A DNA stretch of 64,000 nt from the NCBI GenBank assembly GCA_024180945.1, contig JAKSGN010000016.1, positions 620,001-684,000 on the forward strand, given 5' to 3'. How positions within the stretch are numbered: position 1 is the first letter of the stretch; each line of letters begins with the position of its first letter. The stretch comes from Macrophomina tecta. Its lineage: Eukaryota > Ascomycota > Dothideomycetes > Botryosphaeriales > Botryosphaeriaceae. Below, piece by piece: positions 8,427-57,837 of this stretch. Both the position numbers and the translations under genes were made by a program. The notes under the pieces are model-generated. The model was given only the letters and a program-made list of their open reading frames with translations. It was not told where the DNA came from and ran no database searches.

Positions 8427-9917
8427 TTACCTCCAAACGAAGTTGGCCATCTGGTTGTAGCGGCAGCCGACGATGAAGCGGTCGACCTCATCGGCCCACT
8501 TCTCTGCCGACTCGGCCGCGCGGACCTCGGCGAGAAGCTCGGCGGCGACCTTGTCGAAGCGCTCGATGTTGGTCTTGAGCTCCCGGCACGTGTCCTCAAT
8601 GGCCTGCTGCACAGTCATGCCGCGGGTGTAGACGAGGACGGGCACAATGCTGTCGATGTCGCCGTGACGCTGTTTCATATGGAAGAGTGAGAACGCGCTT
8701 CGAAAGAATAGTGCTCGGTTGCTCAACTCCGCATTCTGTTCTTATGTAGGGGGGGATTGGGGCTTGAGGTGCAGGAGCATCACGTACGATTTCCTTTCTG
8801 AGTGATAGCATGTCGTTGGACCTATATTTTGAATCCAGGTAGTCAGTTCGAGGGTAATGACCCCTGAAAAGGATGTGTGCGGGGCATGCTGCGACAAATG
8901 ATGCAAATCTGGAGGACTTACAAGGACATATTCATGTTGACTTCGTGCCACAAGGCCCGCATCTTGGGGTGCTCCATAATCCAACGGGGAAGCGTCTGGC
9001 CGTCGGCGAACCTGTCCGCGCCGTCAGCAAGCAGTCGTAAGATCGGATGTCACTTCACGGAGGCACGGGCTGTGTCTTACTCATTCAGAGCCAACATGGA
9101 GGTGACGGCACTTGTGCCCATTCTGGTCCTCCAGTACTCGGATGCTTCGGGCATCCCCCCGCCCAGCTTTCTAGCTTGCTCGCGTTGTTGGCAACCCATG
9201 TAGTAGTCAATTTCGTCGACGAAGCACATAATCTGGTCTGGACAGGGATCTTCTTTTAGCACGATTCCTGACTATAAATCATGTTCTTTAAGGAGAAAGG
9301 GAGGACAAAAGGGCGGTTCCCACCACCAGATTAGCAACCCACCTTTGTCATAGACTTCGCGCAGCTCGGCGCCGATGACGTCCAGGCTGCGGATCAGCTT
9401 GTTCTTAGGCGGGTTCACATCGAAATGGTACTCGTCGGTCTCCTCGTTCGGGACGCCCAGGGAGTAGCGGGCGTAATGCAAGGACTCACGCCTGAAAGCG
9501 TTGGCATTGTCCAAGTTGATGAAGAGGTCGGACGTGGACTGATCGATCTCGTCATCCCAGGTAAAGAGCCACAGAAACCAGAAGGTCACGGTTTTGAGCC
9601 TCTTGCCGTCCGCGCGAGGCCACCAGAGGGAAGACAGCAGAGCGTAGTCGCCTTTCTTCAGGGCGGCAGCTCGCTGGGGAGGATATAGGCTGGACGGGCT
9701 GTTAGCAGATGCAGGTCTTTAGGGCGGTCGAGGCGGGTCCATACTCATCAATCCTGGCCGATAAAGCTTCCTTGAGTTCGGGGTAGTTTGGGTTGAGTGC
9801 TTCAGGCCAGTCCTTGTACAAGGGCCGGAGGTTGGGGATGTAGAAGGAGTCACGGCTCATTTCGGTTTTCAGGTTGGGCCTGGGGTTGACAGGCTGCTGA
9901 ACTGCGACGGAGGCCAT
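8427..9917 (-). CDS. Class I terpene cyclase (probable sesquiterpene synthase)
   Basis: It would ionise a prenyl diphosphate, most likely farnesyl diphosphate, with Mg2+ and cyclise it in the cytosol. Six exons fit canonical GT..AG introns: 9917-9745, 9674-9343, 9252-9081, 9011-8922, 8821-8788 and 8669-8427. They give 347 residues without a stop, a normal length for a fungal single-domain cyclase. The aspartate-rich motif is TWDDEID at about residues 97-102. The second metal site is NDMLSLRKE at about 258-266, matching NDxxSxxxE. A C-terminal Arg-Tyr pair (CRYNQ) is present. The gene is divergent from the P450, with 360 bp between the start codons. Product identity cannot be read from sequence. 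An extra 3' exon beyond 8427 is possible, since the family often continues further. Confidence 0.88.
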
Positions 9918-10277
9918 GGTGGGTGCAGGAGAACGCTGTGCAATTCCGGTCGGGTGGTCCTGTTAGGGCGTACGAAGGTGTTGTTGAATAGTTCTTTTTC
10001 TTTTTTCTTTTTTTTTCTGCCGGCCGAGTTTGCGGTCGGTTAGGGCTACAGCGTAAAGGTGACTTTGGCGGCCTTCAGCGGCGGTGGTCGGGCAATAATA
10101 TTCGGAATCCGATGTTTGCCGATTCTAAGTCCGATCGTCCTGTCCGCTTAATATATACAATCGGCAATGTATGGGGAAGGTGCAAGTCTAGAAGGGTATA
10201 AAGGGATCTCAAAAGTTTGTGCCGCCACCGCCCGCGACGCTGGTTGTCCCTGCTGTCTTCCGGCGGAGTGAAACACC
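9918..10277. promoter_or_regulatory. Shared divergent promoter, terpene cyclase / P450
   Basis: The 360 bp between the two start codons must drive both genes. It contains a T-rich tract on the cyclase side (about 9989-10018) and TATA-like stretches near 10149 and 10196 on the P450 side. A perfect palindrome TCGGAATCCGA lies at 10102-10112. That palindrome fits TCG-N5-CGA, the consensus published for AflR, and also CGG-N3-CCG. Co-regulation by the AflR-like factors in this window is an inference. Confidence 0.65.
10102..10112. promoter_or_regulatory. AflR-type palindrome TCGGAATCCGA
   Basis: A perfect 11-bp inverted repeat of form TCG-N5-CGA, 176 bp before the P450 start and 185 bp before the cyclase start. 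A near-identical palindrome precedes the GAPDH gene at 15743. Confidence 0.6.
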
Positions 10278-11859
10278 ATGACGACGGCCTTCCCACCACC
10301 GTCTCTCACAGCAGCCTCGGCGAGCGCGTTAGCTCTAGGGTGCATATATGTGCTGTCGTTGGTTGCTTATCGTCTCTACTTGCACCCACTAGCCAAGATC
10401 CCGGGGCCAAGGCTTGCTGCCGCCACAAAATGGTACGAGTTCTACTTCGAGATCGTCAAAGCTCCGGGAGGCCAGTTTTCCAAAGAAGTGAGCCGGATGC
10501 ACGACCAGTACGGTGAGCGAGAGATCTTTCGGGTGCTTTGAGTAGACAGTGGCGTTAAGTGTGATTGTACAGGGCCCATAGTGCGCATCAACCCCGAGGA
10601 GGTCCACGTGCGAGACCCGTCGTGGTTCGAGGTCCTCTACGCGCCGAACCCAACGCACCGCAACAAGTACCCCCCGTCGGCCCAGCTGGCCGGCTTACCT
10701 CTGGGAAGTGGGTGCATCACCACGGCTCCTGCATCCTGTGTCTCGGTTGCTGACCAAACGTTGCCGCAGCCCACGGAACTGTCGAACACGACGTCCACAG
10801 AAGACGGCGAATGGCGAACGCCCCGATGTTCTCGAAGCGCGCGGTCGCAAGCGCTCAGAGCTTGATACGCCAGCACATTGACGAGCTCGCCGGCGTATTC
10901 GCGTCCAAGATGGGAACAGGCGAGCCGGTCGAGCTGCAGACAACGTTCCTGGCGTACACGACGGATACGATATACCACTACATGTTCGACAGGGACACGG
11001 GGTACCAGCGCAATCCGGAGGCGGCCGAGCGCTGGCGGCGCTCAATGCAGGCAGTCTCGCAGGCGACGCCGTTCATGAAGCAGTTCCCGTCACTGCTGCC
11101 GAAGCTGATGATGTTTCCGAGCTCAGTGCTTGAATGGATCCTCATGCGGGTGCAGCCCGACATTGCCGGCTTAATGGGCACGCACAGGGTAGGTTCCGAC
11201 CCGATCCGATCTGATTCGCCTCTTGCACGATCGGTGGTGTTCGTGGCTCATATGTTGCAATAGCTCATGAGTGAGATCGTGTCCGATCACGTCAAGTCCG
11301 AGCCGACCGGACTGGAGGCCGAGGAGCACAAGGCCGCGGCCGTGCGCCAGCGCGCGTTCGCCAAGCCGAGGACGATATTCCACGCGATCGAGAGTAGCGG
11401 TCTCCCGCACAGCGAAAAGACGCCGGCCCGGTTGGCGCAAGAGGGGCTGACGGTCCTGTTCGCCGGAGGGGAGACGGGCTCCAGAGTGTTGGCCAACACG
11501 GTGTACCATTTGCTGGCGAACGCCGAGGTGCTAGAAAAGGTCAAGGGCGAGGTGTTTGCTGCGGCGGCGGGCTCGAACAAACTCCCCGACGTCAAGGAGC
11601 TGGAGAAATTGCCCTGGCTGGTAAGGTCTCCTCGTATCCGATTCCGGATAGGTTCTTACACGACAGCAACCGGCTAATCTAACGCCTCCTGTCTCTCTTT
11701 ACAGGCGGCCTCAGTGCGAGAATCCATTCGGCTGAGGGCACCGACAACATCAAGACTCCCGTTGACGTCCAATAAAGAGCTTGTTTATGGCAATTTTATC
11801 CTGCTGCCAAACGTGAGCTACCCGTGAGCCTGCATCACGCAACCCCTCCCCCTTTCCCC

Positions 11860-11898
<39 letters not shown>

Positions 11899-12352
11899 GC
11901 GCCTCCTCAATCTGACTTTCCCTCGTCCCTTTTTGCGCAGACGCCGGTCAGCATGAGTATTCCGGACATCGTGCACGACCCGAACATCTTCCCGGAACCG
12001 ATGAAATTTAAACCAGAGCGGTGGTTCGGCGCGAGCGACGAGCAGAACCGCTTTTACGTCGCGTTTGGGAAGGGAACGCGGATGTGCGTTGGTATGGAGT
12101 AGGTAGCGAAGGTCGTCCAGCCCCCACCACAATAAGTAGCGCTGACACGTCCGAAACCCCACCAGCTTTGCGTACGGCGAGATCTACATGAGCTTGGCGA
12201 CGATCATCTGCCGGTTTAAGCTCGAACTCTTCGAGACATATCGGGCGAGAGACGTTGACTACAATCGGGATTGTTTCCTGGGAGAGAGCGACCGGTCGAG
12301 CCCGGGCGTGCGGGTGAAGGTGCTCGAGGACACCAAGGCCTTTACCGCTTAA
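10278..12352 (+). CDS. Cytochrome P450 monooxygenase next to terpene cyclase
   Basis: It would hydroxylate or oxidise a terpene scaffold at the ER membrane, with electrons from a P450 reductase. Seven exons join in frame: 10278-10512, 10573-10707, 10770-11188, 11264-11620, 11705-11812, 11941-12098 and 12166-12352. They give 532 residues, normal for a microsomal fungal P450. An N-terminal hydrophobic anchor spans about residues 12-33 and is followed by the proline-rich hinge KIPGPR. The I-helix reads AGGETG near 330-335 instead of the usual AGxDTT. The K-helix ExxR is ESIR at 388-391. The heme loop is [10 protein letters not shown] with Cys467. The start was chosen because it precedes the anchor. 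The style resembles P450s of sesquiterpene clusters such as Tri4 relatives, but no family number is claimed. The fifth intron holds an AT microsatellite. Confidence 0.92.
11863..11896. repeat. AT dinucleotide microsatellite in a P450 intron
   Basis: About 17 AT units lie between the donor at 11813 and the acceptor at 11940. Length variation here would not change the protein. Confidence 0.9.
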
Positions 12353-13067
12353 CCGACCTAGAAGGGGAGCTGAGGGAATTCCGCCAGGCGTAGAGGCCGT
12401 GGCGTGCTCAATGCGAATGCTAAATGACAGTGAAGCATGGTGCGTGCTGAACAATGCAGTCGGAGGGCAAAGTATTCTCATTCCGTGGGCCGGATGGCCT
12501 GCGAGATCCGCGTACGCTTTGTACAGTATGGTAAAAGTAAAATTAATGGAATTCTCAGCCCCTGTCTACTGATATCTACCACTCGGCCTTCTGCTATTAT
12601 GACATCGGTGTTGGGAAGCTCCGGAAGCGGGTCTTCTCAAATGGCGTCCCATGCCTCTTGCACTGCAACTCTTATGTGCAAGTGGCAGATAGTCGAGTAG
12701 GCGGATAGATCTACAGCTCCTAACAAACACCTCAGGCTCGTCAAGCTGGCCAGGGCGACGCTTGAGGGGGTGCAGGATGACCGGCCAGGCAAGCATTTTC
12801 TACCTGGCGTCCTGCAACACCTTTATGCCGCCGGTTGACAGAGCGAAGCGCGGGGCAGTGCAGGCGCTCACCACGCGTTGGTTCAAGGGTAGCAGGCGGT
12901 GCGGCAGGGGTGGCAGGAAGCGCAGTAGTATGCGTGGTAGCCGAGTCGGCGGCAAGCGTGTCGGGCGAGGTTGTCAGAAGGTTTAGGCAATGGTTGGCAG
13001 TCGCTGACTCGGGCCCGCGCACCGGCCCCAAAGACACACAGCCAGACCAACCGACACTCTCCCTACG
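12353..13067. other. Intergenic region with a possible Tc1-like scrap
   Basis: No intact gene is seen. On the minus strand, about 12560-12695 reads RVAVQEAWDAI followed after a stop by DVIIAEGR. This resembles the last part of fungal Tc1-like transposases, but the match is short. The rest should hold the P450 3' flank and the promoter of the small gene at 13068. Confidence 0.35.
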
Positions 13068-13529
13068 ATGACGGCGAACTGCAGCTGCGTCTTGGACACG
13101 CTCCGCATGCTGCTGCGGGTCGAGGCGGCGCGCGAGCAGGCGGCGGCGGCGCTCGACACGCGGCTGGAGCTGGCGGAGCGCTGCGAGAGCCGGTGCCTGG
13201 AGATGCTGGCGTGCCCGCGCTGCCGCCGCCAGCGGTTCGCGCTGCTCTGCGCGACGGCCGTCAGCACGCGCACCGTGCAGCTGCTGGCGCGCGAGGCGGG
13301 CGCCGGCGGCGTGCCGCTCTCCATCGGCGGCCGCCCGCTGGACCTGGCAGACGCCGAGCCGCTGCTGCAGGAGCTGCTGTCCTTCCAGCTCGACAACTTC
13401 TCCAGCATGCAGCGCGCGCTCGAGTCAGTCGTGGGCGGCCTGGGCGACGCCGACAGAGCTGCTTGTCTGGATGCGCTCCGGGCCAACGTGGACCAGCTGC
13501 GCCGTCTGAAGGCGCGGCTTGCTATATAA
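13068..13529 (+). CDS. Small AflR C-terminal-domain protein (copy 1)
   Basis: This is a 153-residue single-exon protein with no zinc cluster. It looks like the C-terminal regulatory domain of AflR-type factors standing alone: an N-terminal CSC, an LDTRLELAER helix, then CPRCRRQRFALL, a Leu-rich helix and a basic end. The copy at 23773 shares LDT-LELAER, the C..CR.RFAL segment and the ending KARLA. It lies 59 bp upstream of an AflR-like factor on the same strand. It lacks a DNA-binding domain, so one possible role is to bind the factor and modulate it, like a microProtein; that is inference. The start is the only ATG giving the conserved N-terminus. The stop codon overlaps a TATATAA word. Confidence 0.75.
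   Translation: MTANCSCVLDTLRMLLRVEAAREQAAAALDTRLELAERCESRCLEMLACPRCRRQRFALLCATAVSTRTVQLLAREAGAGGVPLSIGGRPLDLADAEPLLQELLSFQLDNFSSMQRALESVVGGLGDADRAACLDALRANVDQLRRLKARLAI
13523..13529 (+). promoter_or_regulatory. TATA-like word overlapping the stop of the small gene
   Basis: TATATAA includes the TAA stop of the small gene and lies 60 bp before the ATG of the regulator. It could be a core promoter for the regulator if the two are not cotranscribed. Confidence 0.35.
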
Positions 13530-13588
13530 CCGCCCGCCTCCGCGCCGTACTCCCACCAACCGCGCGCGCGCGCTCCTCCCAGACTGCG

Positions 13589-13757
13589 ATGGAGCCGGCC
13601 GCCGCGCCCGCCCCCAAGCGGCGCCACACCTGCGACGGCTGCAAGCGGGCCAAGGTGCGCTGCAACTCCGCCCGCCCTCTCTGCGCCCGCTGCCTGCGCC
13701 TGGGCTCCGAGTGCGTCTACAGCCTCTCGCGCCGGGCCGGCCGCCCCCGCCTCAAGA

Positions 13758-13803
<46 letters not shown>

Positions 13804-14653
13804 CGCGCCCGTAGCCCCCGCCGTCGCCGAGCTGGTGCCCACGCCCTCCTCCTCGTCCGCCTTTGCGCCCGCTTCCGCCTCCATCGCCTCCATCTCCGCC
13901 GACGCCGCCGCCCTCGATCTTGGCCTTGACCTTGACCTCGACCTCGACCTCGACCTCGACCACCTCGACCTCGACCTCGACCCCGCTCCCGCCCCCGACC
14001 TCGACTTCTGCGCGACCGCCTGGGCCGTGTCCGCCGCCTCGCCCCCGGGCTGCGCGCTGCCCGACGGCTACGCCGTGCCCGCCGACGCCTCCCTCACCGA
14101 CGTGACCTTCGACTCGGCGCAGTCGAGCCCCGGCGCCGCCTGCAACTGCGCCGCCAGCCTGCTCGACTGCCTCTCCGACACGGCCGCCCACGTCGCGGGC
14201 CCCAACATCGCGCGCGCCGTTCACGCCTCCAAGCGCGTCCTGGACCGCTGCCGCGCCGTGCTGGACTGCGTCCGCTGCGCCGAGCGGTGGACGGCCGTGC
14301 TGGCGCTCTGCCAAGCCGTCGATCACGTCGCCTGCGTGCTTGATCTGGGCTCGCTCTGGTCCGATTCGCCGTGCATTCCGCGCCACTGCCTCTGGCGCGA
14401 GGGGCTGGCCCGCGACGACGTTCCGCTGTGGGCCGGCTCTCACACCATCAGCGGCCCCAAGCGCCGCCTCCTCCTGCGCGCCATCCTGCTGCGCCGCCTG
14501 GCAGAGTTGCGCGAGGTCATGGCCGCCGTGCGCCGCGCCGCCGACGCCCAGGCCGCCGCCTCCCAGGCCACGTGCGAGAAGTCTTTCGCCGCATTTGCCG
14601 GGGACGTGGCGGCTGCGCTCTCGGCCAGAGCGGAGCTGGTCAGCGGCCTGTGA
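13589..14653 (+). CDS. AflR-like Zn2Cys6 transcription factor (copy 1)
   Basis: A 354-residue nuclear regulator. The binuclear zinc cluster is C15, C18, C25, C32, C35 and C42, followed by the linker YSLSRRAGRPR that resembles AflR. Then come about 14 glutamines (CAG codons, 13760-13801), a Ser/Ala/Pro-rich stretch, and an unusual Asp-Leu repeat near 13915-13981 from GACCTC units. The C-terminal half begins CNCAASLLDCL and matches the AflR regulatory domain. An upstream ATG at 12971 in the same frame was rejected, because it would run through the small gene and lacks family similarity. It should control secondary-metabolite genes; the nearby TCG-N5-CGA palindromes suit it. A second copy is at 24372. 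Confidence 0.88.
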
Positions 14654-17027
<2,374 letters not shown>

Positions 17028-18095
17028 TAAGGGACCGCGCGAAGTGAAGGTGTGGGAAGAGAGAAAAGGGAGGGGGAGGGGATTGCATGATCTGCTCGTA
17101 TTGCCCAATTTGGCAGTTCCGTCTTTCCATAGCTTATGGTAAAGTCCGGCTTTGCGATTGGGGATTATCGCTCATAGACCCATATAGATAAAACGCCAGG
17201 TATCCACACTCTTTTACTCATAGCTGTGGTGGCCTTGTATCGTTCCCCGCCGTCCGATTGGAGACAATGCATTTATTCCTACTAGCGTACCAGCAGCCGC
17301 ATTGGTACTGCCGACGGAACCGTTGTTGGCTCCACTATCGTGCAGTCGTACGACTCTGGCTACCGCTAGTGCTTAGATTAAGTTAGACCAGCTAGTAGGA
17401 GGACAAAAGTGGCTACCACCAGAGCAGACGTCCGTACACTTGTCAATAGGGCAGCGTCTCTCATGGGTAGGGTCTCGCCGACCCGCTGAACTCCGGATAA
17501 GAGCTTCTCTGTCCTAGCCGCTGCCGCGATGCTTTAGGTCAGTCATCCTATGTTTATCCCAGAGCTTGTCCGAGAAGGAGAATAGGGATGCGTACGTGCA
17601 TGGGTTGCTCGGCGCAGTTGTTGCATTAGATCTAGCGTGGATATGTATGAAAGGACTATAGCGTCACAGACCGCTTAAACAGAAGCAATCCGTATCGTGC
17701 AACACGTCTGGCCACAAAAGCGCTAGGAACGGAAAGAAATAAAGTACCCCCACTCTTCGTTACGGTTTGCGTGGGTTCCGTGGGCCGGTAAACCCGTGGC
17801 TCCTAGTGCCTCCACCGACGTCTGCTTCTTCTCCGTGCTCGCGAAAACCTACTACAAGGGTCCCAGGCTCCGCCTATACGGAGAAACCCAGCAGAGCGCA
17901 GACAAATACAGTGAGCGCGCCCTCGGAGTTCATGGAGTACACCTTTTTGGCCAGGAGAGTACATCCTGCTTGGGCCGCCCAAGTGACAAGGGAGAGAACG
18001 GGCTGTGAAAGCCGCGTTCAGCCAACCAGAAGGGTCAATTTGGCCAACACGAGCACTGTGTCCTCCGGCCGTAGGACATGCGGCGGATTAGATTC
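17028..18095. other. Intergenic region downstream of GAPDH, no gene supported
   Basis: I see no domain on either strand. Small open frames at 17767-18225 and 17796-18008 overlap each other and look like degenerate sequence. A GAPDH 3' UTR is expected at the left edge. Confidence 0.4.
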
Positions 18096-18240
18096 TGTTG
18101 AACTTGGTGGGAGAAATGAGATTCTCGGTGATAGACAGGAGTATAGTGACCTGATAAAAGTTCTGGGCCACTTAAGGGAGGCGCGCCAAAACGCGTCGCA
18201 CGCGCGCACCACTTCAATCTTCTAGACCACCCAATGCCCC
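18096..18240 (+). mobile_element. Probable LTR 5' fragment
   Basis: It begins TGTTGAACTTGGTGG followed by AAATGAGATTC, which resembles the start of the 120-bp LTR at 3250. The similarity ends after about 38 bp. The 3' limit and any target duplication could not be found, so the right boundary is approximate. Confidence 0.4.
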
Positions 18241-18372
18241 CATAACGTACTTCTTTAAACGAGCTCTTTGGCAAGTATACTCCTAATTAGCCCTACTATC
18301 TATATTAGCACCGTATTCTGATTGCCTATGAGGTATTAGGTAAGAAAAGCGCATAGTTTTGTAAGGAGCTTA

Positions 18373-18796
18373 ACGTGTTTCACCAGTGAGCTGGCCACCC
18401 CAGTGAGCTGGCCACCCAAAAACCCACCAAAAATCGGAAAAGTCGTACCTTGATATCTCGACAACGGCGTAATAATAAATTTCAAAATTCTAAAACTAGT
18501 TTTTTATACCTTCTTTAAGACTCTTGTCAAAGTTCTAGAATAATAAGCGTAGCCATTATTAAGATATCGAGTTTTTGGTCCCAATTTTAAGCTAAATTGC
18601 TAGATCTCTAGGGCTGCTTAGTGAATTCTTTTTAAAATCGAATAAGAGTGTCAAAATAGGTATAAAAGGCTAAATATGAAATTCTGAAATTTATTATTAC
18701 GCCGTTGTCGAGATATCAAGGTACGATTTTTCCGATTTTTGGTGGGTTTTTGGGTGGCCAGCTCACTGGGGTGGCCAGCTCACTGGTGAAACACGT
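18373..18796. mobile_element. 424-bp TA-flanked MITE with long terminal inverted repeats
   Basis: The arms begin ACGTGTTTCACCAGTGAGC and are inverted over about 120 bp on each side, so the element could fold into a long hairpin. TA dinucleotides flank it at 18371-18372 and 18797-18798, as for Tc1/mariner-type elements. Each arm contains two copies of CAGTGAGCTGGCCACC. No coding capacity. Confidence 0.85.
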
Positions 18797-18831
18797 TAGC
18801 ATGCCCAGCTCGTCCGTTACTAATACCAACC

Positions 18832-18961
18832 TGTTGTTACGACGGACCCGACCGTGTTGGGTTTCAGTCGGCGTGTAAGACCATTCGGCCAACCTCCCGT
18901 CGACTCCCAGTCGACAAAAGGTTCAGCAATGATCAGCCTGGTGGCTGATCGTGCCCCAACA
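18832..18961 (-). mobile_element. Probable solo LTR, about 127-130 bp
   Basis: On the minus strand it begins TGTTGGGGCACGATC and ends GTCGTAACA. A RIP-damaged relative lies at 52726-52862. No 5-bp duplication was confirmed. Between this and 19123 I see no gene. Confidence 0.5.
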
Positions 18962-19524
18962 ACTCTATATACAGGTAGGTCCGTAACACCATAGGCTGGT
19001 TTACCCGCTTCTCTTCTCGGGTTAGCCAGTAGGGCAAACCTACTAGCTCTAGGCCTTGATTAAAGGTAGCGACTTCTTGCCTAATAGTAGAAAGTGCCTC
19101 CTTAGAGGCAAAATCCCTAGTACCCGCACCCGTGCAAAAGTCAGGGCGCACGGCCAAGGCGCTAATTATCCTGCCACCAACACCAACACTTTGGAGTTGC
19201 ATTGTTCAACAACGAGTTGCTCAAATACAGTGAGAGTTGATTCTTTGTAAAGCTAGGCTACCAGCGAGTTTGATTAGTCACAAGCTTGAATAACATCTAC
19301 AAGCCGTTGTGACATACTTTTACAAAGCGCTTTAAGGCTTGGTGATGGCGCATGGTCCTGCGAGCCTCAAATGGGAACCAGTTCGCGAAACTGATGATGG
19401 AAAAATCTGGTTGTTCTCCTAGCTAATGAGCGGCGTTGGCTATAGATATCTGACACTATAACCGAGGCAAACAAAAAGCTTAAACAGATCAGGCAATAAG
19501 GCGTTGATCAGCCAACGATTGGGC

Positions 19525-20769
19525 TCATGTTCCATCACTTGGTTTTTCCACCAATGCGTACGCCCGGGGCAACCACTCAGCAAGCAACGCCTCAACACGC
19601 TCAGGATTCTTCTCCAGCCCAATGAATGGCGCAATCTCTTGAAGCTTCATCTTCAGTGGCCACCAAAGGTATTCCTGGAGGTTTAGGTCAGGCGAATATG
19701 GAGGGTGAGTAATGCACCTAATTTGATGATCACGCAGCCAATTCTTTACCTGTTTCGCTCGATGAATACTGTTAGAATAAGTGCAGTGGCAGCTTATTCA
19801 GTAGTGATGGGATGAATTGGCCTAGATTGGCATATCTAGTAGAGGGAGGCCGTACGGGCTTCCCTTATACCTATTCTATCTACTAGGGTAAAACGGGTAT
19901 GTAACTTGCTTACCTGCTGAGACAGGTGTGCAACGAGTATAAGACATAACTGAATCCAAAACACTACTGAATCAAATATTCCAACAAATACCAACACCAT
20001 CTTGTAACCAGTACATGCCATAGTCGTAGTTTCTTGGCACCTGTTCCTCCAGTACTTTAATGTAGGATTTGGTAGTGTAGCCTTGCCTAGGAGAGTCTAA
20101 ATCACGCTCCATGACGTGTAAATCAGACACCCCCAGCTGGCCTGAAAAGCCACCCCATACCATACACCTTGCCTCCTTGCCAAGTGGCCGTGTATTGAGC
20201 CGGCTTTGGTCCCGCTTTTGCTGGCCAGGCGTACGGAAAACCCAGCTTGGTGCGTGGCCAGAGCTCTGCTCAACTGAGCACTCATCACCAAACGTAACCC
20301 TCATCCACCATCTCCAGCTCTTATACCGGTATTTCTTTGCATATTGGTACCGAATGCGGGCATTCGCTTGAGAGATCCAAGGCCGATCCTTTGCACGCCA
20401 TTTGGTGATATGGTTCTTGCGTAGAATACGCCTGAGCGTATCTTTATGGATAGATAACTGGAGTTGCTTAATCACTTGGCTGTGCCTGAGTTTTGGGAGC
20501 CGGTTGATAAAACGAATAATCTGGCGCTCCGTGCGAAGGCTAACTTTGGAAGGACGGCCAGTACAAGGTGTTAGATCAACCTGGCCAGTCGTATCGTAGT
20601 GGTTGAAGCAGCTCCTGATTGCGTGTTCTGAGAAGCGAGTCTCACGGGCAATTTGACGCCCAGATTTGCCACCTCGTGATTGTGTAATAACCGAAACTCG
20701 TTGATCATGTGAAAGCTGATGCCTTTGCCTAGCATTGCCTGAAATTTCGCGTCCAAAGATGCGCTGCAT
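19525..20769 (-). pseudogene. Tc1-like DDE transposase split by a solo LTR
   Basis: The cut-and-paste transposase runs 20769 to 19987 and resumes 19764 to 19525. The Copia LTR plus one target copy lies between. The two parts are in frame with each other and together would be 340 codons, so this insertion is the only lesion I see. Helix-turn-helix segments occupy the first third (GKSGRQIARETRF; GRPSKVSLR). Catalytic acidic residues are expected in TFGDECSV, in WLQDGVG at the break, and in SPDLNLQEYLW. The start at 20769 was preferred over an upstream ATG that lies outside the inverted repeat. Confidence 0.85.
19770..19986 (-). mobile_element. Copia solo LTR variant, 217 bp, TSD AATAC
   Basis: It is flanked by AATAC at 19765-19769 and 19987-19991. 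It matches the 253-bp LTR at 7935-8187 but lacks the first 36 bp of that LTR and ends instead at an internal TGTTGG/CCAACA. Confidence 0.88.
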
Positions 20770-20857
20770 GGCGGTGTAATGAGGCAAGGGATGAAGAGGG
20801 TGCGTTGTTGTTTTGACTTGTGCACGTCCGTGCGCCCTGACTTTTGCACGGGTGCGG

Positions 20858-21351
20858 TCCACTGACGACCCGAACATATTCCCCCCCTTGTTCTTAGATG
20901 AAGTAGGCGCTGAGACATGCGCCTGGCTGTAACATAAGGGAACGGCGTTCTGGGATTACCGGGGGTCTAGATTACGGCCATAGGGCAAATATGCGGTGAA
21001 GGAGAATCACCTATTCTTCCGTCCCGCAGAACGCCGGGCAATGGATGCGTTATTTGCTACATATCGATTCAAGGTGGGGGCCGGGGTTAGATACGCGCTA
21101 AGCTAGCCCAAAGTGTAACTCCGGATCTCCCGCAGGCCCTCATTAACAACGGGCGGACAGAGTTCCAAGGCCAATTCCGAATCGAGGGTTATGGCGATCT
21201 TCCTGACATTTCCGGCGGGTCCTGAGAAACGCTGTGGGCATCCAAGCTGCGTTTCTCCGCGCGGCCGGAGAGGATTTCCCCCTTCACAAGATGGCCGGGG
21301 CGACATGAGCACGACACGACTGGTATTAGGATCTGCGGCGGAGATGGCTGT
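20858..21351. other. Intergenic region, no gene supported
   Basis: This lies between the Tc1-like element and the dipeptidase pseudogene. Minus-strand frames continue beyond the dipeptidase stop without recognisable domains. Confidence 0.35.
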
Positions 21352-21501
21352 CTAACGCAACAGGCTGGTGAACATGGGCTCGACGTCGTCCTCAAGCGGC
21401 TCGACGGCGGCCATGTCGCGCGCAACGTCCTCGACTGCGGCAAGCACGCGCAGCACGTTGGTTCCAGCAATCCCACGCACGGAGGGCGGGGTATTTTCTG
21501 A

Positions 21502-21697
21502 TGGAACATGAGCCCAATCGTTGGCTGATTAATGCCTTAATGCCTGATTTGTTTAAGCTTTCTGTTTGCCTCGGTTATAGTGCTAGATGCTTATAGCCAG
21601 CGCCACTTATTTGATAGTAGCGAACAACCAGATTTTCCATCATCAGTTTCGCGGACTGGTTCCCATTTTGAGGCTCGCAGGACCATGCACCATCATT
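21502..21697 (+). mobile_element. Tc1-like 3' fragment inside the dipeptidase pseudogene
   Basis: This is an inverted, slightly diverged copy of about 19350-19540. It contains the last codons of the transposase (stop at GATGGAACATGA) and the 3' non-coding region. No terminal repeat was found, so it arrived by partial duplication or abortive repair. Confidence 0.75.
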
Positions 21698-21916
21698 TTC
21701 CGACATGCTCGAGGCCGACGGGCGCGGAGTCGAAGCCCATGCCGTCGAAGTCAGCACCCAGGCCGACGTGTCGCCAGCCAATCAGCTCGCCGATGTACAC
21801 GATGTGGTCCGCGACGTCGGCCACAGTGGCGTTAGGGCCGCAGGCGACGAAGGGCGGGTAGAAGTTGACCATGATGACGCCGACATTGTCGCGCAGCTGG
21901 AGCAGGACGTCGTCGG

Positions 21917-22115
21917 CAGAGTTGCTATCAATCAATTCTCTGATTGAACTCGGACCATGGTCCAAGCTCACCCTAATGTTACTATAGCAATAAGCCTGCA
22001 CAGTACACGAACAGGCTCTTGCACAGGCCAAATTAAGTAAAGCATGCCAAAAAACTTAAAAAGCTCGGACCATGGTCCAAGTTCAATCAGATTGAATTGA
22101 TTGATAGCAACTCTG
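21917..22115. mobile_element. 199-bp hAT-type MITE, 8-bp TSD GTCGTCGG
   Basis: The ends are CAGAGTTGCTATC and its inverse, with about 48-bp inverted repeats. GTCGTCGG is repeated at 21909-21916 and 22116-22123. Removing the element plus one copy rejoins the dipeptidase frame (NVPDD to VLLQL). Its termini differ from those of the intact hAT at 26310, so a different transposase moved it. Confidence 0.9.
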
Positions 22116-22525
22116 GTCGTCGGGGACATTGCGGGGGATGGGACACAGGGCTGCGGCGGCCGAGTGCGAGAAGAGCACAGGAGCGCTGGACAGCCGCAGC
22201 GCCTGGCGGGCAGTGTCGGCCGGCGGGCGACAAGCCCCCGTGGCGCGGGACGGCGGGCGCGGCGCTGTCAGCAAAGGTGTTGTGGCAGACATGGGTGAGG
22301 GTTGCGACGCAGCGCCGAGCCCGGCGCGCTAGCCACCTGGTGCAGGCCCTCGATGCCCAGGAGGCTCGACACGGCGGCCCACGGCACGGACCGCCACTGG
22401 GCCAGCACGTCATCGACTGTGGGCTGCTGCAGCTGCAGCGGCGTTTGAAGGCGCGGCAGGCCGGCGGCCTGCCGAGTCAGCAGCCGCACCACCAACAGCG
22501 GGATGAGCGACTTGAGGCGAAACAT

Positions 22526-23772
22526 GATAGGCTCCTAAGACAAAAGCTGCTTTAACTAGCGCATTGCTGCAGCCGTAAACCGTATATCAGCAGTGGCCCG
22601 CCGGTTGCCGAGCTTGCACGGAGACCGATCGCTCGCGGAAAGCCTGAGGTAATGTAGCTTTGTAAAGCAGAATGAGGAGCTCATCAGATGCACCGCCCCT
22701 CTGACTGCAACATCATCTCAATCTGTCATGAGTGCATCGCCCAGTGATTGGACATCAGCAGCGAGCTTCAGCGGTTGCATACCCTTCCATTACCGTTGGG
22801 AGTTGAACCATGACGGATGCTACAGCCCCACCGCCCCGATCGATTAACTCTGCGCTGTGGATTACCAGCAAGGACCTAACTGGGCCAATCTGGAACCGTG
22901 CAAGTACTCCATCAAGGGTCCCTCACGAACTCCGAGGCCGCCCACACCGTCGTTTTCCGGGTTTCTTATTGGTTCGTCTATGCCCAAAACCGCAGTAGGG
23001 CACTGATTTTTACAGAGTGAGCGGCCACGTATCTCATAAGAGATCCTCGTACAGGAGGGTTCTGCAGCGTCGTGTTGTTCTTAAGGTGGAGCGATGCTGT
23101 TCTGGCCTATCATGGCACTGGAATACAGCCATAATCCCCTGTTCTCACAACCCGTAATCTGGGCACTAGCGGTCAGCGCTACACAGCTCACTTGTCACCT
23201 CATTAACCGATCCGGTAGCTTGTGCCTCCGCGCCTGGGTTTCACTCAGTAGGGCGACAAAATTCTCGGCCTCGGCGCTTGCACAGACCGTTTTCCTTCTG
23301 CTCATCGAATCGGACGCTGACGAAGGTTGCGGCCTGTCTCGGTGAGAACGCCCATTTACATAGTCAGCGGCCGTTCAAGAGCCCGCGGCGGGGTAGAGAG
23401 TCAATTGCTGCCGCAAGAGAGAAGCCAGTTGGTGCGGGGCGCGCTCAGTTGCGAGGGAAAAGTCAGTTGATGCGGGGTGCGTTGAGTGGCGAACGAATGG
23501 TCAGCAACTGACGCGCACAGCGCCTGGGCAAGAAGCGATTACAGTAGCGACCTCAAAACTCATTGGCAGAGCGCTAAGATCGGGTACCGGGCCGGTCGCG
23601 GGCGGGCCGAACGGAAACCGAAGAGGGGACCAGAGAAGTGCTGCGTGTATTTAAGTGTTGTTGTAGGCAGCGGCGCGGCGTTCTACAGCAACCAAGCGAG
23701 CAAGCAAGCAGGCAGGCAGGCGAGTTGGAAGACGACCAAGAAGGCAAGCAAGCTTTGACGCGGAGACTACTG
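22526..23772. other. Intergenic region and promoter of the second regulator module
   Basis: No gene is supported. A TATTTAA-type word lies near 23649, about 120 bp before the small gene at 23773. The last part also holds CAAG/CAGG short repeats near 23690-23720. Confidence 0.4.
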
Positions 23773-24273
23773 ATGGCAGGCAACCAGTGCGGGTGCGCGC
23801 TACTAGCGTTACGGGCGCTCGCCCGGCTCGAGCAGCTCGACGGCGCAGCGGTGCCCCTGGACACATCCCTAGAGCTTGCTGAGAGGGCCGAAGCGGACTG
23901 CCTGATGGTCCTACACTGCGAGACATGCCGGCAGCGCCGCTTCGCCCTGATCAGCGTGACGGCGCTCAGTGCGTCCGTTATCGATTGGCTGCAGCGCTCG
24001 TGGCAGCTTGACGGCACCGCCCCGGAGCATCCGCCAGCCCTCATCTCGCTCGGCGATTACCATTTGGAGGCTGCCGACGCCGAGACCCTGAGTCGCGAGC
24101 TCATGGCCCTGCGACTCTCGCACCTGTCCAAAGTCATGGGCGCGCTTAAGGCTGCCATCACCACCCTGGGCAGTGGGAGAGCGGGCACTTGCCTGGACGT
24201 CGTCCACGCAAAGCTCCAGCAGCTGCGCGATTGCACCCAGCGAGTCAAGGCCCGTCTCGCCGCGTCGGAATGA
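23773..24273 (+). CDS. Small AflR C-terminal-domain protein (copy 2)
   Basis: A 166-residue single-exon protein, paralogous to the one at 13068. Shared features are an N-terminal C-x-C (CGC), LDTSLELAER, C..CRQRRFAL, LEAADAE...ELMALRLSHL, a CLD segment and the end VKARLA. It has no zinc cluster. It lies 98 bp upstream of a second AflR-like factor on the same strand, repeating the arrangement 10 kb to the left. The ATG at 23773 was chosen over one at 23638, because the extra 45 residues are basic low-complexity sequence with no counterpart in copy 1. The function is unknown; modulation of the neighbouring factor by domain pairing is inference. Confidence 0.75.
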   Translation: MAGNQCGCALLALRALARLEQLDGAAVPLDTSLELAERAEADCLMVLHCETCRQRRFALISVTALSASVIDWLQRSWQLDGTAPEHPPALISLGDYHLEAADAETLSRELMALRLSHLSKVMGALKAAITTLGSGRAGTCLDVVHAKLQQLRDCTQRVKARLAASE

Positions 24274-24371
24274 GCAGCCTTCCGCCCCTTCCGCCCCCAT
24301 CTCTTTAATACGACCCTCGCCGCCCTCGATCAAGCAACTAAGCGCTGGAATCACGCAATACGCACCCCATC

Positions 24372-24645
24372 ATGAACACACCCGGCACTCAAAACCCAGC
24401 CGGGCCCCCGACCAGAGCCTCCAAGATCCGTCTTTCCTGCGACAGCTGCCAGCGCTCCAAGATCCGCTGCGGCCAGGAGCGCCCTGTCTGCCGGCGGTGC
24501 CTCAAGTACGGCATCGAATGCGTCTACAGCCCTTCCCGCCGTGCCGGACGCCCACGCAACCGCAAGACAACTACACAGGCAGGCCAGCCAGCAGTCCGCC
24601 AGCATGAGCAACCGCAGCAACAGCCGTCGTCGCCGCAGCAGCAGC

Positions 24646-24707
<62 letters not shown>

Positions 24708-25736
24708 CCGCCATCACCTCCACAAACGCTCTCCACTCCGGCGAACACGTCACTCCCCCCAGAGCAATGTATTCCGCCGCGATCTGCCCCCTGCGAAGAC
24801 ACCATCATTGTGGCCACAACGCAGCCCTGTGCCGTGACCCCAGCCCCCACCACCGCCACCTCTCTGCCTGGTTTAGCCCAGTTTCTTGCGGAATCACCAG
24901 TTCCAAGCGGTTCGGCGGCTCTGGCTGACTCCGTCGGCAGCCGCGATGAGACGTTTCCGGACCTGACCCCTGTTGATGCCACGGACGATTTCTATGCCAT
25001 GTTCCCGGGGCTCAATGGCCACCAAATGCCCGACGCACACCAGGACCAGGGGGTCGACTTCGATTTCCTCCTTGGCCCGCAAGACGACATCGACTTTGCC
25101 TCGAAGACATCGTACTACTACCTTTCCGCCTCTAACCCCGGGTCCGATGCTGGCTCGACGACCTCTCAGCCCGGGAGCAATGGCCTCTGGCCTGCCGCCG
25201 CAAAATGCAACTGCTCTGCAGCCCTTCTCGACCTGCTCGCCCAGCCGCCAATCGCAGGCAGCCAATGCGGCGAGCTAACGTCCATCGCCGGTGCCGTATC
25301 TCAGTCCGGGCCGCTGCTCGACCAATGCTACTGCGTGCTTTGCTGCCCGCAGTGCGCATCTCATTTCTCATCCGTCCTCATGGTATGCGAGGCCATGGAC
25401 CGTGCTTCCATCGCGCTCGATATGGGGCCGCTGTGGGACGAGCAGAACCTGGACTGCCGGTCTGCGCGCACAACCACCAGCATCGACCTCGCCCGCGACG
25501 AGTCACCCCTCCGCTGCGGCAACTACACCGTCCGCAGCGGCGACCGCCGCATCGTGCTGCGAGTGCTCATCATGAAGCGCTTGACGAAGCTGCAGCATAT
25601 CATGGCCAAGCTACGGACTGCCATAGACTCCCGGCCGGCATCTGATCCGGTGTTGCACAAAGCGTTTGCCGGGCTCGTCTCCGAGTTTATCGCCAAGCTC
25701 ACTTCCAATATAAATTTAGTCAAAGTCTTAATATAA
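24372..25736 (+). CDS. AflR-like Zn2Cys6 transcription factor (copy 2)
   Basis: A 454-residue nuclear regulator. The zinc cluster is C23, C26, C33, C40, C43 and C50, followed by YSPSRRAGRPR, almost the same linker as copy 1. A glutamine run of about 25 follows, encoded by CAA codons (about 24635-24708), where copy 1 uses CAG. The middle is Ser/Thr/Pro- and Asp-rich. The C-terminal AflR-type domain starts CNCSAALLDLL near 25205 and includes VLCCPQCASHF and a C-terminal helix pair. Single exon; the start is the first ATG before the cluster. Sequence after the stop is AT-rich. Confidence 0.88.
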
Positions 25737-25799
25737 ATAGTTAACACGAGTTCCTTTTGTCATACTGCTTCATTTCCTGCAGACCAATTCGTGCTGTTT

Positions 25800-26309
25800 T
25801 GCTCAGCGTGTCCAACCACCCGCCCGCCCCCGCCCGGCCCTACGGGCGGGCGGGCGGTCGAGCAACCAGCGTTCGGCGGGCGGGTGGATTACGTAACAAG
25901 AGACCCGGCGGGCGGGTGGGCGGGCGGGTAAATCAGTTATACCAAATCGGGTAGTCCATGATAGAGCTCTATAGTGTTGAAATAGTTATCAAATTCGTCA
26001 CCTATCGTACAACGCTGCCTCCCGCACCTCACACACCTTCTTTAAAGAGCCCTGCTCGTAGCCAGTGCTTCTGGCATTCCTCCGCTTCAAGCATATCGTT
26101 ACCCATGCGGTTGCGGTCGTCTGTAAGGATCTTTTTGGTCTGGCTGAAGACTCGTTCGCACTCTGAGCTCATGGCGGGTATACTAAGGAGATTCATGGCC
26201 ATTCTTTGTAGGATAGGCCACTTCCCTCCCTTCGTAAGCCATCAGTTGAGCGGGTCCTTGAGCTTGCTGTTGGTTATACCAATCTCCATATAAGAATCAA
26301 GCTCACTAA
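25800..26309 (-). mobile_element. hAT-2 remnant: transposase 3' end and GC-rich subterminal repeats
   Basis: On the minus strand 26290 to 26029 reads the hAT dimerisation domain: WPILQRMAMNLLSIPAMSS, a CERVFS motif and ECQKHW, ending in TGA at 26029. The following 25800-25935 is packed with GGGCGGGCGGG and its inverse, probably subterminal transposase sites. The element stops at 26309, where the intact hAT-1 begins. The rest of the gene is not found on the other side of hAT-1. Confidence 0.7.
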
Positions 26310-49343: not shown

Positions 49344-50790
49344 ATGGGCCCACCTCCGGAATCCATCGTCGATATCGCCCGGCGCATTCTCGAGAATGCG
49401 GAGGAAATCTCGAAGTATCTTTCGAGCACATCGCACCCGCCTCCATCATTCTCTCCCTTCGCCCCGGAGACACTCCTGCCACCAGACACCAGCGATTCGG
49501 CGACTCTAGCGCTCCGCACGACGCTGCTCGACGACACCAAGAAGCTGTACGACCTGGCCCTGGGCCCGAAAGAAGTGACCCGATGGACGGCGTACGGCCA
49601 CAACGACGTCGCGGCGCTGCAATTCGCCGTGCGCTACGGGATCCCGCGCTTGGTCCCGCTACCCGACGACGTGCAGAAGGAAGAGGAGGAAGTGCCGACC
49701 ATCTCATACGAGGACCTCGCAGCCAAGGCGGCGGCTGCGGGCCACCCGGTGGACGCGGTGAACCTGCGGCGGATGCTGCGGCTGTGCATGCTGAACCGCA
49801 TCTTCGCCGAGCCCGCACCGGGCGGCCGCGTCGCGCACACGGCGTCATCGGCCATCCTCGCGCGCTCCGCCGCCGCGGCCGCCCACGTCCGCACCATCGC
49901 CGACGAGACCTTCCCCGCCGCGGCCAAGGTCATCGACGCGCTCGAGAGGTGGGGCGCCCGCCCCGAAGAGCCGTGGCAGTGCGGGTTTTGCCTCGCCTTC
50001 GACGCGGGCGAGAGGTCGGTTTTCGAGTACTGGTCGCAGGAGCATCCGGAGAAGATCGAGAGGCTGGCGATTGGGATGAAGGACGCCGCGACGGACGCGG
50101 GTTGGGAGCCTGCGCACCTGCGGCGGGGGTTCGACTGGGCTGGGCTGGGGAAGGGCAAGGTGGTCGATGTGAGTGCGCAGAAGCTTGGACTTCTTCTTCT
50201 TCTTCTAACTGGCGTAGGTCGGCGGCGCCCAGGGGCACGTTAGCATCGACGTTGCAAAGGAATTCACGAACCTGGAGTTTGTCGTGCAGGACCTCCCCGC
50301 TGTCCTGCAGCAGGCCCAGGAAGAGCTGGTCCCCACACTCCCGGGTCATCTTGCACGGCGTATCAAGTACCAGGTGCATGACTTCATGGAACCTCAGCCG
50401 GTGGATAACGCGGACGTCTATCTGTTGCGCCACGTGCTGCACGACTGGTCCGATAAGTATGCTGCCAAGATTCTGCAGCAAATCGTGCCGGCCATGAAGC
50501 CGGGCGCCAGGATCCTGCTGAACGACGCTGTGCTGCCTGCCGTCGGCGAATTGCCGGCCGTCGACGAGCTCAAAGTCCGGTGAGTATTGCTTCGACTGAC
50601 TGCGTTCGCATGGCTGACCAATAGCAGGAGGATGGACTTGCAGATGATGCATAGCGGGAATGCCCGGGAGAGAGAGCAGAGAGACTGGGAAGGAGTCCTT
50701 GCCCGGACAGACCCACGACTGAAGCTCAAGAATGTGGTCAAGCCTCCTGGAAGTACACTGTCGGTTATGGAGGTTGTCTTGGAAGGATGA
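49344..50790 (+). CDS. SAM-dependent O-methyltransferase (family 2, plant COMT-like)
   Basis: It would transfer a methyl group from S-adenosylmethionine to a hydroxyl of a small molecule. Exons 49344-50168, 50218-50579 and 50628-50790 give 449 residues, typical for fungal secondary-metabolite methyltransferases. The N-terminal half is helical, with a winged-helix-type dimerisation region (YEDLAAKAAAAG, LRRMLRLCMLNRIF). SAM binding is VVDVGGAQGHVS, formed across the first intron, followed by VQDLP. The catalytic-base region is LLRHVLHDWSDKYAAKIL, with the expected His. It stands alone between Gypsy 2 and a Fot1-like element, about 24 kb from the other island. Whether it belongs to the terpenoid pathway is unknown. 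Confidence 0.9.
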
Positions 50791-56987: not shown

Positions 56988-57837
56988 CATGTTCGTAATT
57001 TGCCGTTAAATAAACAGACAGTTCCCGGCTAGGCGGGGCAGGCTGGTTTATTACATTAGTCAGCACGGGGTGTTGGCCGTGCAGGGGATAACCCGACAGC
57101 CCCGGCCAATTCGGGCAGCGTATCTCACAGGCGAATGTCTCGGACTTTTCGAATGCTGAACAGCAAACCCATCGTCGGATTCCGAAATCAGCCGATTCCG
57201 GCAAAAAAATAAAAAAAAAAAAAAAATTCCAAGTCCGTCCACAGTCCGGCGGCGGATCGGCCAGGGTCCGCGTCGTGCGATGCGCTCGCGCAGCGGTGAT
57301 AAGTCATGTCGACGGCTTACGAGGGCGTGGCATGGCGCTGGCGCAACGCCGACCTTGTTCGTGGCCAGGAGCGCATCGGGGGCCGCACCGGGGGCCTCGA
57401 GCACGGTCACAGCAATCTTTCTCCGGCTGCTCATGCGTGGTTGGTGCGCATATCTGGTTGCCGCTCGGCTAGTAATGTCGATGACTTTCTTCTGCCGTTC
57501 CTCGGCTATTATCCATCAACCACCCAAAGATCGCACAATTTCGTGCAAAAGTGAAGCTCGATCCAACTCGCCCAATCCTGGTTCCTGGAATGGATTTTCG
57601 CAGCTGGAAGCGAGGAATACATGTACCTTTCACGACACAAACTTAGATCAGCTACTTCAAAATTTTCATTACGAGGTCAAGCAGCGGCGGCTGTTCTCTG
57701 CGTTCTGTGCATGCGGGATTTTGTTCGCAAGACCATCAATCGGCACCTGTCATGCCCACAGCTGTACTGCCGCAACGTGAGAACGGTCCATCTCGCGTGA
57801 TGTGTGCTTTCCGTTACAGGCCGGTGCCCAGAATCGG
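56988..57837. other. Unassigned region with a TCGGATTCCGA palindrome
   Basis: No gene is supported. A minus-strand frame at 57434-57060 begins MSSRRKIAVTVLEAPG but has no recognisable domain. TCGGATTCCGA at 57175-57185 fits TCG-N5-CGA. A/T-rich tracts at 57206-57227 resemble the T-tract beside the similar palindrome in the cyclase promoter. Confidence 0.35.

What the first reader, a model, noticed from the sequence alone, without database searches (positions are those of the whole stretch)
13068..25736. A two-gene module seen twice: stand-alone AflR C-terminal domain directly upstream of an AflR-like factor
Seen: at 13068-14653 and 23773-25736, a 150-170 residue protein without a zinc cluster but with the AflR-type domain lies 59 or 98 bp upstream of a full Zn2Cys6 plus AflR-domain protein, on the same strand. 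The small proteins share LDT-LELAER and CR-RFAL; the factors share the SRRAGRPR linker and CNC start. Inference: the module was duplicated as a unit, and the small protein could pair with or titrate its partner, like a microProtein. I know of no described system of this form.
Basis: partly seen in the sequence, partly recalled or inferred. Interest (0 to 1): 0.85.

Follow-up and report, generated by a model that had tools for sequence, protein, structure and literature searches.

The report
Two-gene fungal regulator module, repeatedly duplicated
In a plant-pathogenic fungus, a gene regulator is repeatedly found next to a small gene that encodes only a distant relative of the regulator's own tail domain, and several related fungi carry both genes on the same stretch of DNA, which suggests a little-known helper or brake for fungal gene regulators.

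Summary
At 13068-14653 and 23773-25736, small proteins (153, 166 aa) without a zinc cluster lie 59 and 98 bp upstream, same strand, of Zn2Cys6 factors (354, 454 aa). Pfam's AflR model misses all 36 small proteins scanned, but profile comparison links both the small proteins and the factor C-termini to AflR domains of the same genome; 0 of 100 shuffles score as high. AlphaFold models show the same helix order. The host is Macrophomina (inferred). Its genome holds a third intact tandem pair (55 bp gap), a RIP-damaged copy of pair 2, and a pair 41 kb apart. Of 21 factor hits, 6 share an exact contig length with a small-protein hit, once with consecutive tags. Trees of nine pairs agree (Mantel r 0.97). 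These are co-inherited partner genes, not pieces of one gene. Most likely the small protein is a co-regulator without DNA-binding domain that acts through the shared domain; binding, and helper versus brake, are untested. The microProtein reading stays open. New variant of the known factor-plus-co-regulator arrangement.

The parts
13068..13529 (+). s1: small stand-alone AflR-type C-terminal-domain protein, 153 aa, no zinc cluster
13530..13588 (+). 59-bp gap; no ATG in it; no consensus splice donor in 13301-13700; the two frames differ
13589..14653 (+). t1: Zn2Cys6 factor, 354 aa; no in-frame ATG upstream within its open frame
13625..13735 (+). zinc cluster of t1 (residues 13-49, PF00172 E 6e-9)
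14141..14650 (+). AflR-type C-terminal domain of t1, from CNC on; three helices, beta hairpin, two long helices in the model
23773..24273 (+). s2: small stand-alone AflR-type protein, 166 aa
24274..24371 (+). 98-bp gap; an ATG at 24270 overlaps the stop codon of s2 and opens a 12-codon frame that ends before t2 (read from the sequence)
24372..25736 (+). t2: Zn2Cys6 factor with a long glutamine run, 454 aa
24435..24542 (+). zinc cluster of t2 (residues 22-57, PF00172 E 7e-11)
25206..25733 (+). AflR-type C-terminal domain of t2, from CNC on
10102..10112 (+). TCGGAATCCGA, between terpene-cyclase pieces (-) and P450 pieces (+); possible factor site (weak inference)
15743..15753 (+). TCGGGGTCCGA, 146 bp upstream of the GAPDH start; possible factor site (weak inference)

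Best explanation
Each module encodes a pathway-type Zn2Cys6 regulator and a dedicated partner that is a stand-alone, distant relative of the regulator's AflR-type C-terminal domain. The partner cannot bind DNA through a zinc cluster and lacks the long linker. It most likely binds its own factor through the homologous C-terminal domains and modulates its activity, stability or nuclear supply, as has been proposed for AflJ/AflS and AflR. Shown here: domain relationship, duplication as a unit, linkage in other species, congruent histories. Inferred: physical pairing and regulatory role. The sign (helper rather than inhibitor) is a guess, about 60:40, because the small gene is kept with its factor across lineages.
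For: Small proteins and factor C-termini each align nearly full length to AflR domains of the same genome; 0 of 100 shuffles as good. AlphaFold helices, compared by eye and not superposed: s1 H6-23, H29-48, H56-77, two-residue bridges at 85-90, H93-120, H127-152 (mean pLDDT 81); t1 H187-201, H207-226, H228-231, H234-250, H268-274, strands 280-287, H290-324, H328-353 (14 of 18 ten-residue blocks from residue 181 on at 82-96). Three intact tandem pairs with gaps of 55, 59 and 98 bp, one stop-ridden copy and one pair 41 kb apart in this genome. Trees of nine pairs: Mantel r 0.966, 0 of 20000 permutations as high. dN/dS estimates for pair 1 vs C37 that could be computed are all below 1: s 0.63 and 0.18, t 0.53 and 0.16 by two methods. 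Passages of PMC3528264 cite AflJ binding to two C-terminal domains of AflR.
Against: No interaction, expression or knockout data. Pfam AflR: 0 of 36 small proteins, 1 of 23 factors at E 0.14. The direct profile match between small proteins and factor C-termini is the weakest of the three (probability 20%). Three of the five AlphaFold models of s1 had low mean pLDDT (59, 55, 52). Clathrospora has both genes but on contigs of different length (314764 vs 23989); Phyllosticta and Neofusicoccum gave factor hits but no named small-protein hit. dN/dS is uncertain because third positions are nearly all G or C; differences between s1 and the C37 small gene at codon positions 1, 2, 3 are 29, 22, 28, and two regional runs failed. 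PMC3528264 itself argues for an alternative, endosomal role of AflJ.
Confidence: 0.6

Rival explanations
1. MicroProtein-like inhibitor: the small protein pairs with the factor's C-terminus into a dead complex and so sets a threshold or feedback brake.
For: It is a lone domain of the factor's kind without DNA-binding domain or long linker, beside its putative target at three intact tandem loci.
Against: No sign that it arose recently from its own partner's C-terminus: small proteins resemble each other and the AflR domains better than their partners. A pure inhibitor would not obviously be kept with the factor in several genera (inference).
Confidence: 0.25
2. Independent function: the small protein has another partner or acts elsewhere, and the linkage only reflects membership in one gene cluster.
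For: In the two Pleosporales records with numbered tags the genes are four tags apart; at C5 they are 41 kb apart.
Against: Copying as a unit, congruent trees, shared domain family.
Confidence: 0.12
3. One split or misread gene: the two frames belong to one spliced or frameshifted protein, so there is no small protein.
For: The gap is very short, and the t1 frame stays open through s1.
Against: Frames differ at all three tandem copies, and no consensus splice donor was found near the two window junctions (the C37 junction was not scanned); no in-frame ATG upstream of t1; public models are separate (P0002 and P0052); elsewhere the genes are 41 kb or four tags apart.
Confidence: 0.03

Closest known systems
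AflR with AflJ/AflS (aflatoxin cluster)
   Same: A Zn2Cys6 AflR-type factor with a clustered partner gene that lacks a zinc cluster (recalled); passages of PMC3528264 cite work in which AflJ binds two C-terminal domains of AflR and was proposed as a co-activator.
   Different: In those passages AflJ has three predicted membrane spans, belongs to its own fungal family, and the authors favour an endosomal role. Here the partner is a small stand-alone AflR-type domain, directly upstream on the same strand. AflJ was not compared by sequence.
Sol4 (solanapyrone cluster, Ascochyta rabiei) and Brq1 (Cladonia macilenta)
   Same: Regulators reported with a zinc-cluster-factor middle region but no DNA-binding domain (Brq1 passages in PMC8161216; the solanapyrone paper was seen only as a reference entry there, and the name Sol4 is recalled).
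   Different: Their domain is the middle homology region (PF04082 for Brq1); none of the 36 small proteins matched PF04082. The Brq1 authors allow that it may be misannotated. No paired full-length homologue is mentioned in the passages seen.
AurR1/AurR2 (aurofusarin cluster)
   Same: Two regulators in one cluster; AurR2 is called a possible co-regulator whose deletion alters a product ratio (PMC6266765 passages).
   Different: The domain content of AurR2 was not seen; its tag is three numbers from AurR1 in the table shown.
MicroProteins (recalled)
   Same: A lone domain related to a transcription factor, without the DNA-binding domain.
   Different: Inhibition through dimer formation is untested here; small gene and factor form a repeatedly duplicated genetic module.

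Membership tests
AflR domain family (PF08493) | Small proteins match Pfam's AflR model | tested here: not met
   0 of 36 small proteins at E <= 1; none of the four window proteins at E <= 10
AflR domain family (PF08493) | Factor C-termini match Pfam's AflR model | tested here: not met
   1 of 23 factors, E 0.14
AflR domain family (PF08493) | Profile-profile relation to domains that pass the Pfam cut-off | tested here: met
   Against 5 of the 6 own-genome domains that pass (the sixth was not extracted): small proteins E 3e-7, factor C-termini E 4e-10; 0 of 100 shuffles as high
Zn2Cys6 transcription factors | PF00172 zinc cluster in the factor | tested here: met
   23 of 23 factors of alignment A4
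MicroProtein | Small protein with a domain of a factor but no DNA-binding domain | tested here: met
   No PF00172 match among 36 small proteins; shared domain. That the domain is an interaction domain is inferred
MicroProtein | Represses its factor by forming non-productive complexes | not testable with these tools
   Needs binding and expression data
AflJ/AflS family | Sequence relation to AflJ | not tested
   No AflJ sequence was fetched
Sol4/Brq1-type regulators | Fungal-specific middle homology region PF04082 | tested here: not met
   No PF04082 match among 36 small proteins at E <= 1

The most novel reading that the evidence does not exclude
The module is a two-subunit regulator whose subunits are made together: at tandem loci the factor is the second cistron of one transcript, or is driven from a promoter inside the small gene, so the 55-98 bp spacing couples the dosage of partner and factor, and the stand-alone AflR-type domain is an obligate, lineage-matched partner. 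It would be a portable regulatory cassette that spreads by duplication among metabolite clusters.
Probability: 0.25. Interest if true: 0.8.

Novelty: new variant of a known kind. Interest (0 to 1): 0.6.

Why it matters
AflR-type regulators control important fungal metabolite clusters, yet the role of their C-terminal domain is poorly understood (general knowledge). A separately encoded relative of that domain, inherited with its factor, gives a natural way to test what the domain does and a new marker for regulators of silent clusters. A pair that is copied together also shows how a regulatory unit can spread.

Tried and rejected

Fusion or split gene: rejected on frames, lack of a donor consensus at the two window junctions, separate public models, and distant loci.

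Binding sites: 16 palindromes were screened. TCGGNNNCCGA occurs 3 times in the window (0.71 expected; 2 of 100 shuffles had at least 3): at 10102, at 15743, and at 57175, which is not near an identified gene. In the C5 stretches it occurs 5 times, among them 79 bp before the factor and 218 bp before an O-methyltransferase start (genome density 866 in 54.1 Mb). Against: chosen after the screen, no TCGN5CGA site within 1 kb upstream of s1 or s2, TCGN5CGA as such is not enriched in the window (13 against 12.6 expected), and the reversed control pattern is commoner genome-wide (1127). Suggestive only; the likeness to the AflR site is recalled.

Limits of the protein searches: searches scored only the roughly 8000 candidates sharing most words, so absences there mean little (P0052 was missed and found). 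The row P0038 bears the tag G6011_10030 with the name Neofusicoccum parvum, the same tag as the A. panax row P0037; one of the two labels may be wrong. The A. panax linkage rests on P0037, whose contig length equals that of P0020.

Rows dropped: two of 23 factors (P0049, P0051) were left out of the C-terminal profile because no CxC was found past residue 120. The tree of nine pairs left out Exserohilum, whose factor is a 173-aa fragment, and the stop-ridden copy. One of the six own-genome AflR hits (L005) was not extracted. A weak hit at C5:288648 (E 0.52) was not counted as a copy.
Full report
What is there. The four reading frames are as described: s1 13068-13529 and t1 13589-14653 with 59 bp between; s2 23773-24273 and t2 24372-25736 with 98 bp between, all on +. 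s1 and s2 are 41% identical over 139 residues (E 2e-28), t1 and t2 28.5% (E 3e-40). The only credible Pfam domain in the four proteins is the zinc cluster of the two factors.

Host. The nearest public protein to s1 (98%) is from Macrophomina phaseolina, of the Botryosphaeriaceae; that the window is from this species or a close relative is inferred. The window lies in contig C14 of a 54.1-Mb genome of 37 contigs.

Is the domain AflR-type? Pfam's AflR model matches 0 of 36 small proteins at E <= 1 and 1 of 23 factors, at E 0.14. Six places in the same genome do pass the AflR cut-off. A profile of five of these against the small-protein family gives probability 93%, E 3e-7 over 140 columns; against 21 factor C-termini 97%, E 4e-10 over 149 columns; small proteins against factor C-termini directly 20%, E 1e-3 over 145 columns, or 64%, E 6e-5 with four-sequence profiles. 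None of 100 column shuffles reached the real score in any of the three comparisons. By eye they share CxC at the start, an L.C..C segment in the middle, a glycine-containing turn, then a long helix. AlphaFold models of s1 and t1 show the same order, three main helices, hairpin, two long helices; this was read from the element lists, the models were not superposed, and three of the five s1 models had low confidence. So the small protein is best described as a stand-alone, distant relative of the AflR C-terminal domain.

Copies in the genome. Besides the two window pairs there is an intact tandem pair on C37 (207061-207534 and 207590-208528, 55 bp apart; small protein 73% identical to s1), a stop-ridden copy of pair 2 at C14:228826-230927, and a small gene at C5:962444-963169 with a factor at C5:1003796-1005328, 41 kb apart, with sequence in between that is repeated in the window. 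Searches with two other small proteins found no further loci. The DNA match of pair 1 to C37 comes in two pieces, 13067-13763 and 13999-14666, and so runs from the small gene's start to just past the factor's stop; the match of pair 2 to the broken copy (23551-24587 and 24679-26067) covers both genes. The pair is thus copied as a unit. In the broken copy 467 of 489 substitutions are C>T or G>A, 253 of them in CpA or TpG, the signature of RIP.

Other fungi. The factor searches find 19 and 2 proteins. Against: 15 of 21 have no such match; in Clathrospora the two sit on contigs of different length; Phyllosticta and Neofusicoccum factors came without a named small protein. These searches were capped, so absences are weak. 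Adjacency is thus seen in Macrophomina, looser linkage in Pleosporales.

Shared history. Maximum-likelihood trees of nine pairs group pair 1 with C37, pair 2 with 740967/740966 (support 89/88 and 82/89), and C5 with the Pleosporales in both gene sets; path distances correlate at r 0.966, with 0 of 20000 label permutations as high. Long branches meet in both trees and inner forks among the Pleosporales are weak or differ, so only these groups are relied on. dN/dS between pair 1 and C37 is below 1 in every run that finished, but differs by method (s 0.63 and 0.18; t 0.53 and 0.16), because third positions are nearly saturated with G and C; two regional runs failed.

One gene or two? Frames of small gene and factor differ in all three tandem pairs, no consensus donor was found near either window junction, t1 has no in-frame ATG upstream, and the public models are separate. 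The short gaps leave little room for a separate terminator and promoter: either the factor's promoter lies inside the small gene or one transcript carries both (inference). Five and six ATGs, the start itself included, lie between the small gene's start and the factor's start, so simple leaky scanning is unlikely (inference).

Surroundings. Pair 1 lies among terpene-cyclase pieces (weak matches: PDB E 3e-4, Pfam E 0.0016), P450 pieces (E 2e-4 and 3e-7) and a second GAPDH (67% to the copy on C35 over residues 56-287). That recalls the heptelidic acid cluster with its self-resistance GAPDH; the title of that work was seen only in a reference list and the paper itself is not held. The C5 factor lies near a polyprenyl synthase, an O-methyltransferase and a short-chain dehydrogenase. 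So these two modules look linked to metabolite genes, though no target is shown; the stretch around C37 gave no clear biosynthetic gene among the three frames scanned. A palindrome TCGGNNNCCGA stands upstream of some of these genes; it was picked after a screen and is only suggestive.

How it most likely works. The small protein has neither a zinc cluster nor the factor's long linker, but has its kind of C-terminal domain. The simplest reading is a dedicated partner that contacts its factor through these domains. AflJ, proposed as co-activator of AflR, is cited as binding two C-terminal domains of AflR, although the same paper argues for another role (PMC3528264, passages). Regulators without a DNA-binding domain are reported in other clusters (PMC8161216, passages). 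Whether the partner helps or restrains the factor cannot be told from sequence; I lean to help because it is kept with the factor across lineages.

Verdict. New variant of a known kind; interest 0.6.

Noticed in passing
window 9044-16920: Terpene-cyclase pieces (-), P450 pieces (+) and a second GAPDH gene flank pair 1; this resembles a heptelidic-acid-type cluster with a self-resistance GAPDH (the likeness is recalled).
   Followed up: partly
G000 C14:394549-395588: A stop-containing relative of the cluster GAPDH (pieces 83% and 85% identical) on the same contig.
   Followed up: no
L041 (G000 C14:228826-230927): Copy of pair 2 riddled with stops; 467 of 489 substitutions are C>T or G>A, a RIP signature.
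   Followed up: yes
window 21696-22055: Membrane dipeptidase (peptidase M19) piece on the - strand upstream of pair 2.
   Followed up: no
window 50218-50580: O-methyltransferase piece on an island of about 50% G+C between stretches near 30%.
   Followed up: no
window 19975-20955 and 18371-18798: Tc1-like transposase frame, and an inverted repeat with 174-nt arms, 87% complementary, 80 nt apart.
   Followed up: no
window 24636-24713 and 13760-13801: Long glutamine-coding runs in both factors, mostly CAA in t2 but mostly CAG in t1, so the runs may have expanded independently.
   Followed up: no
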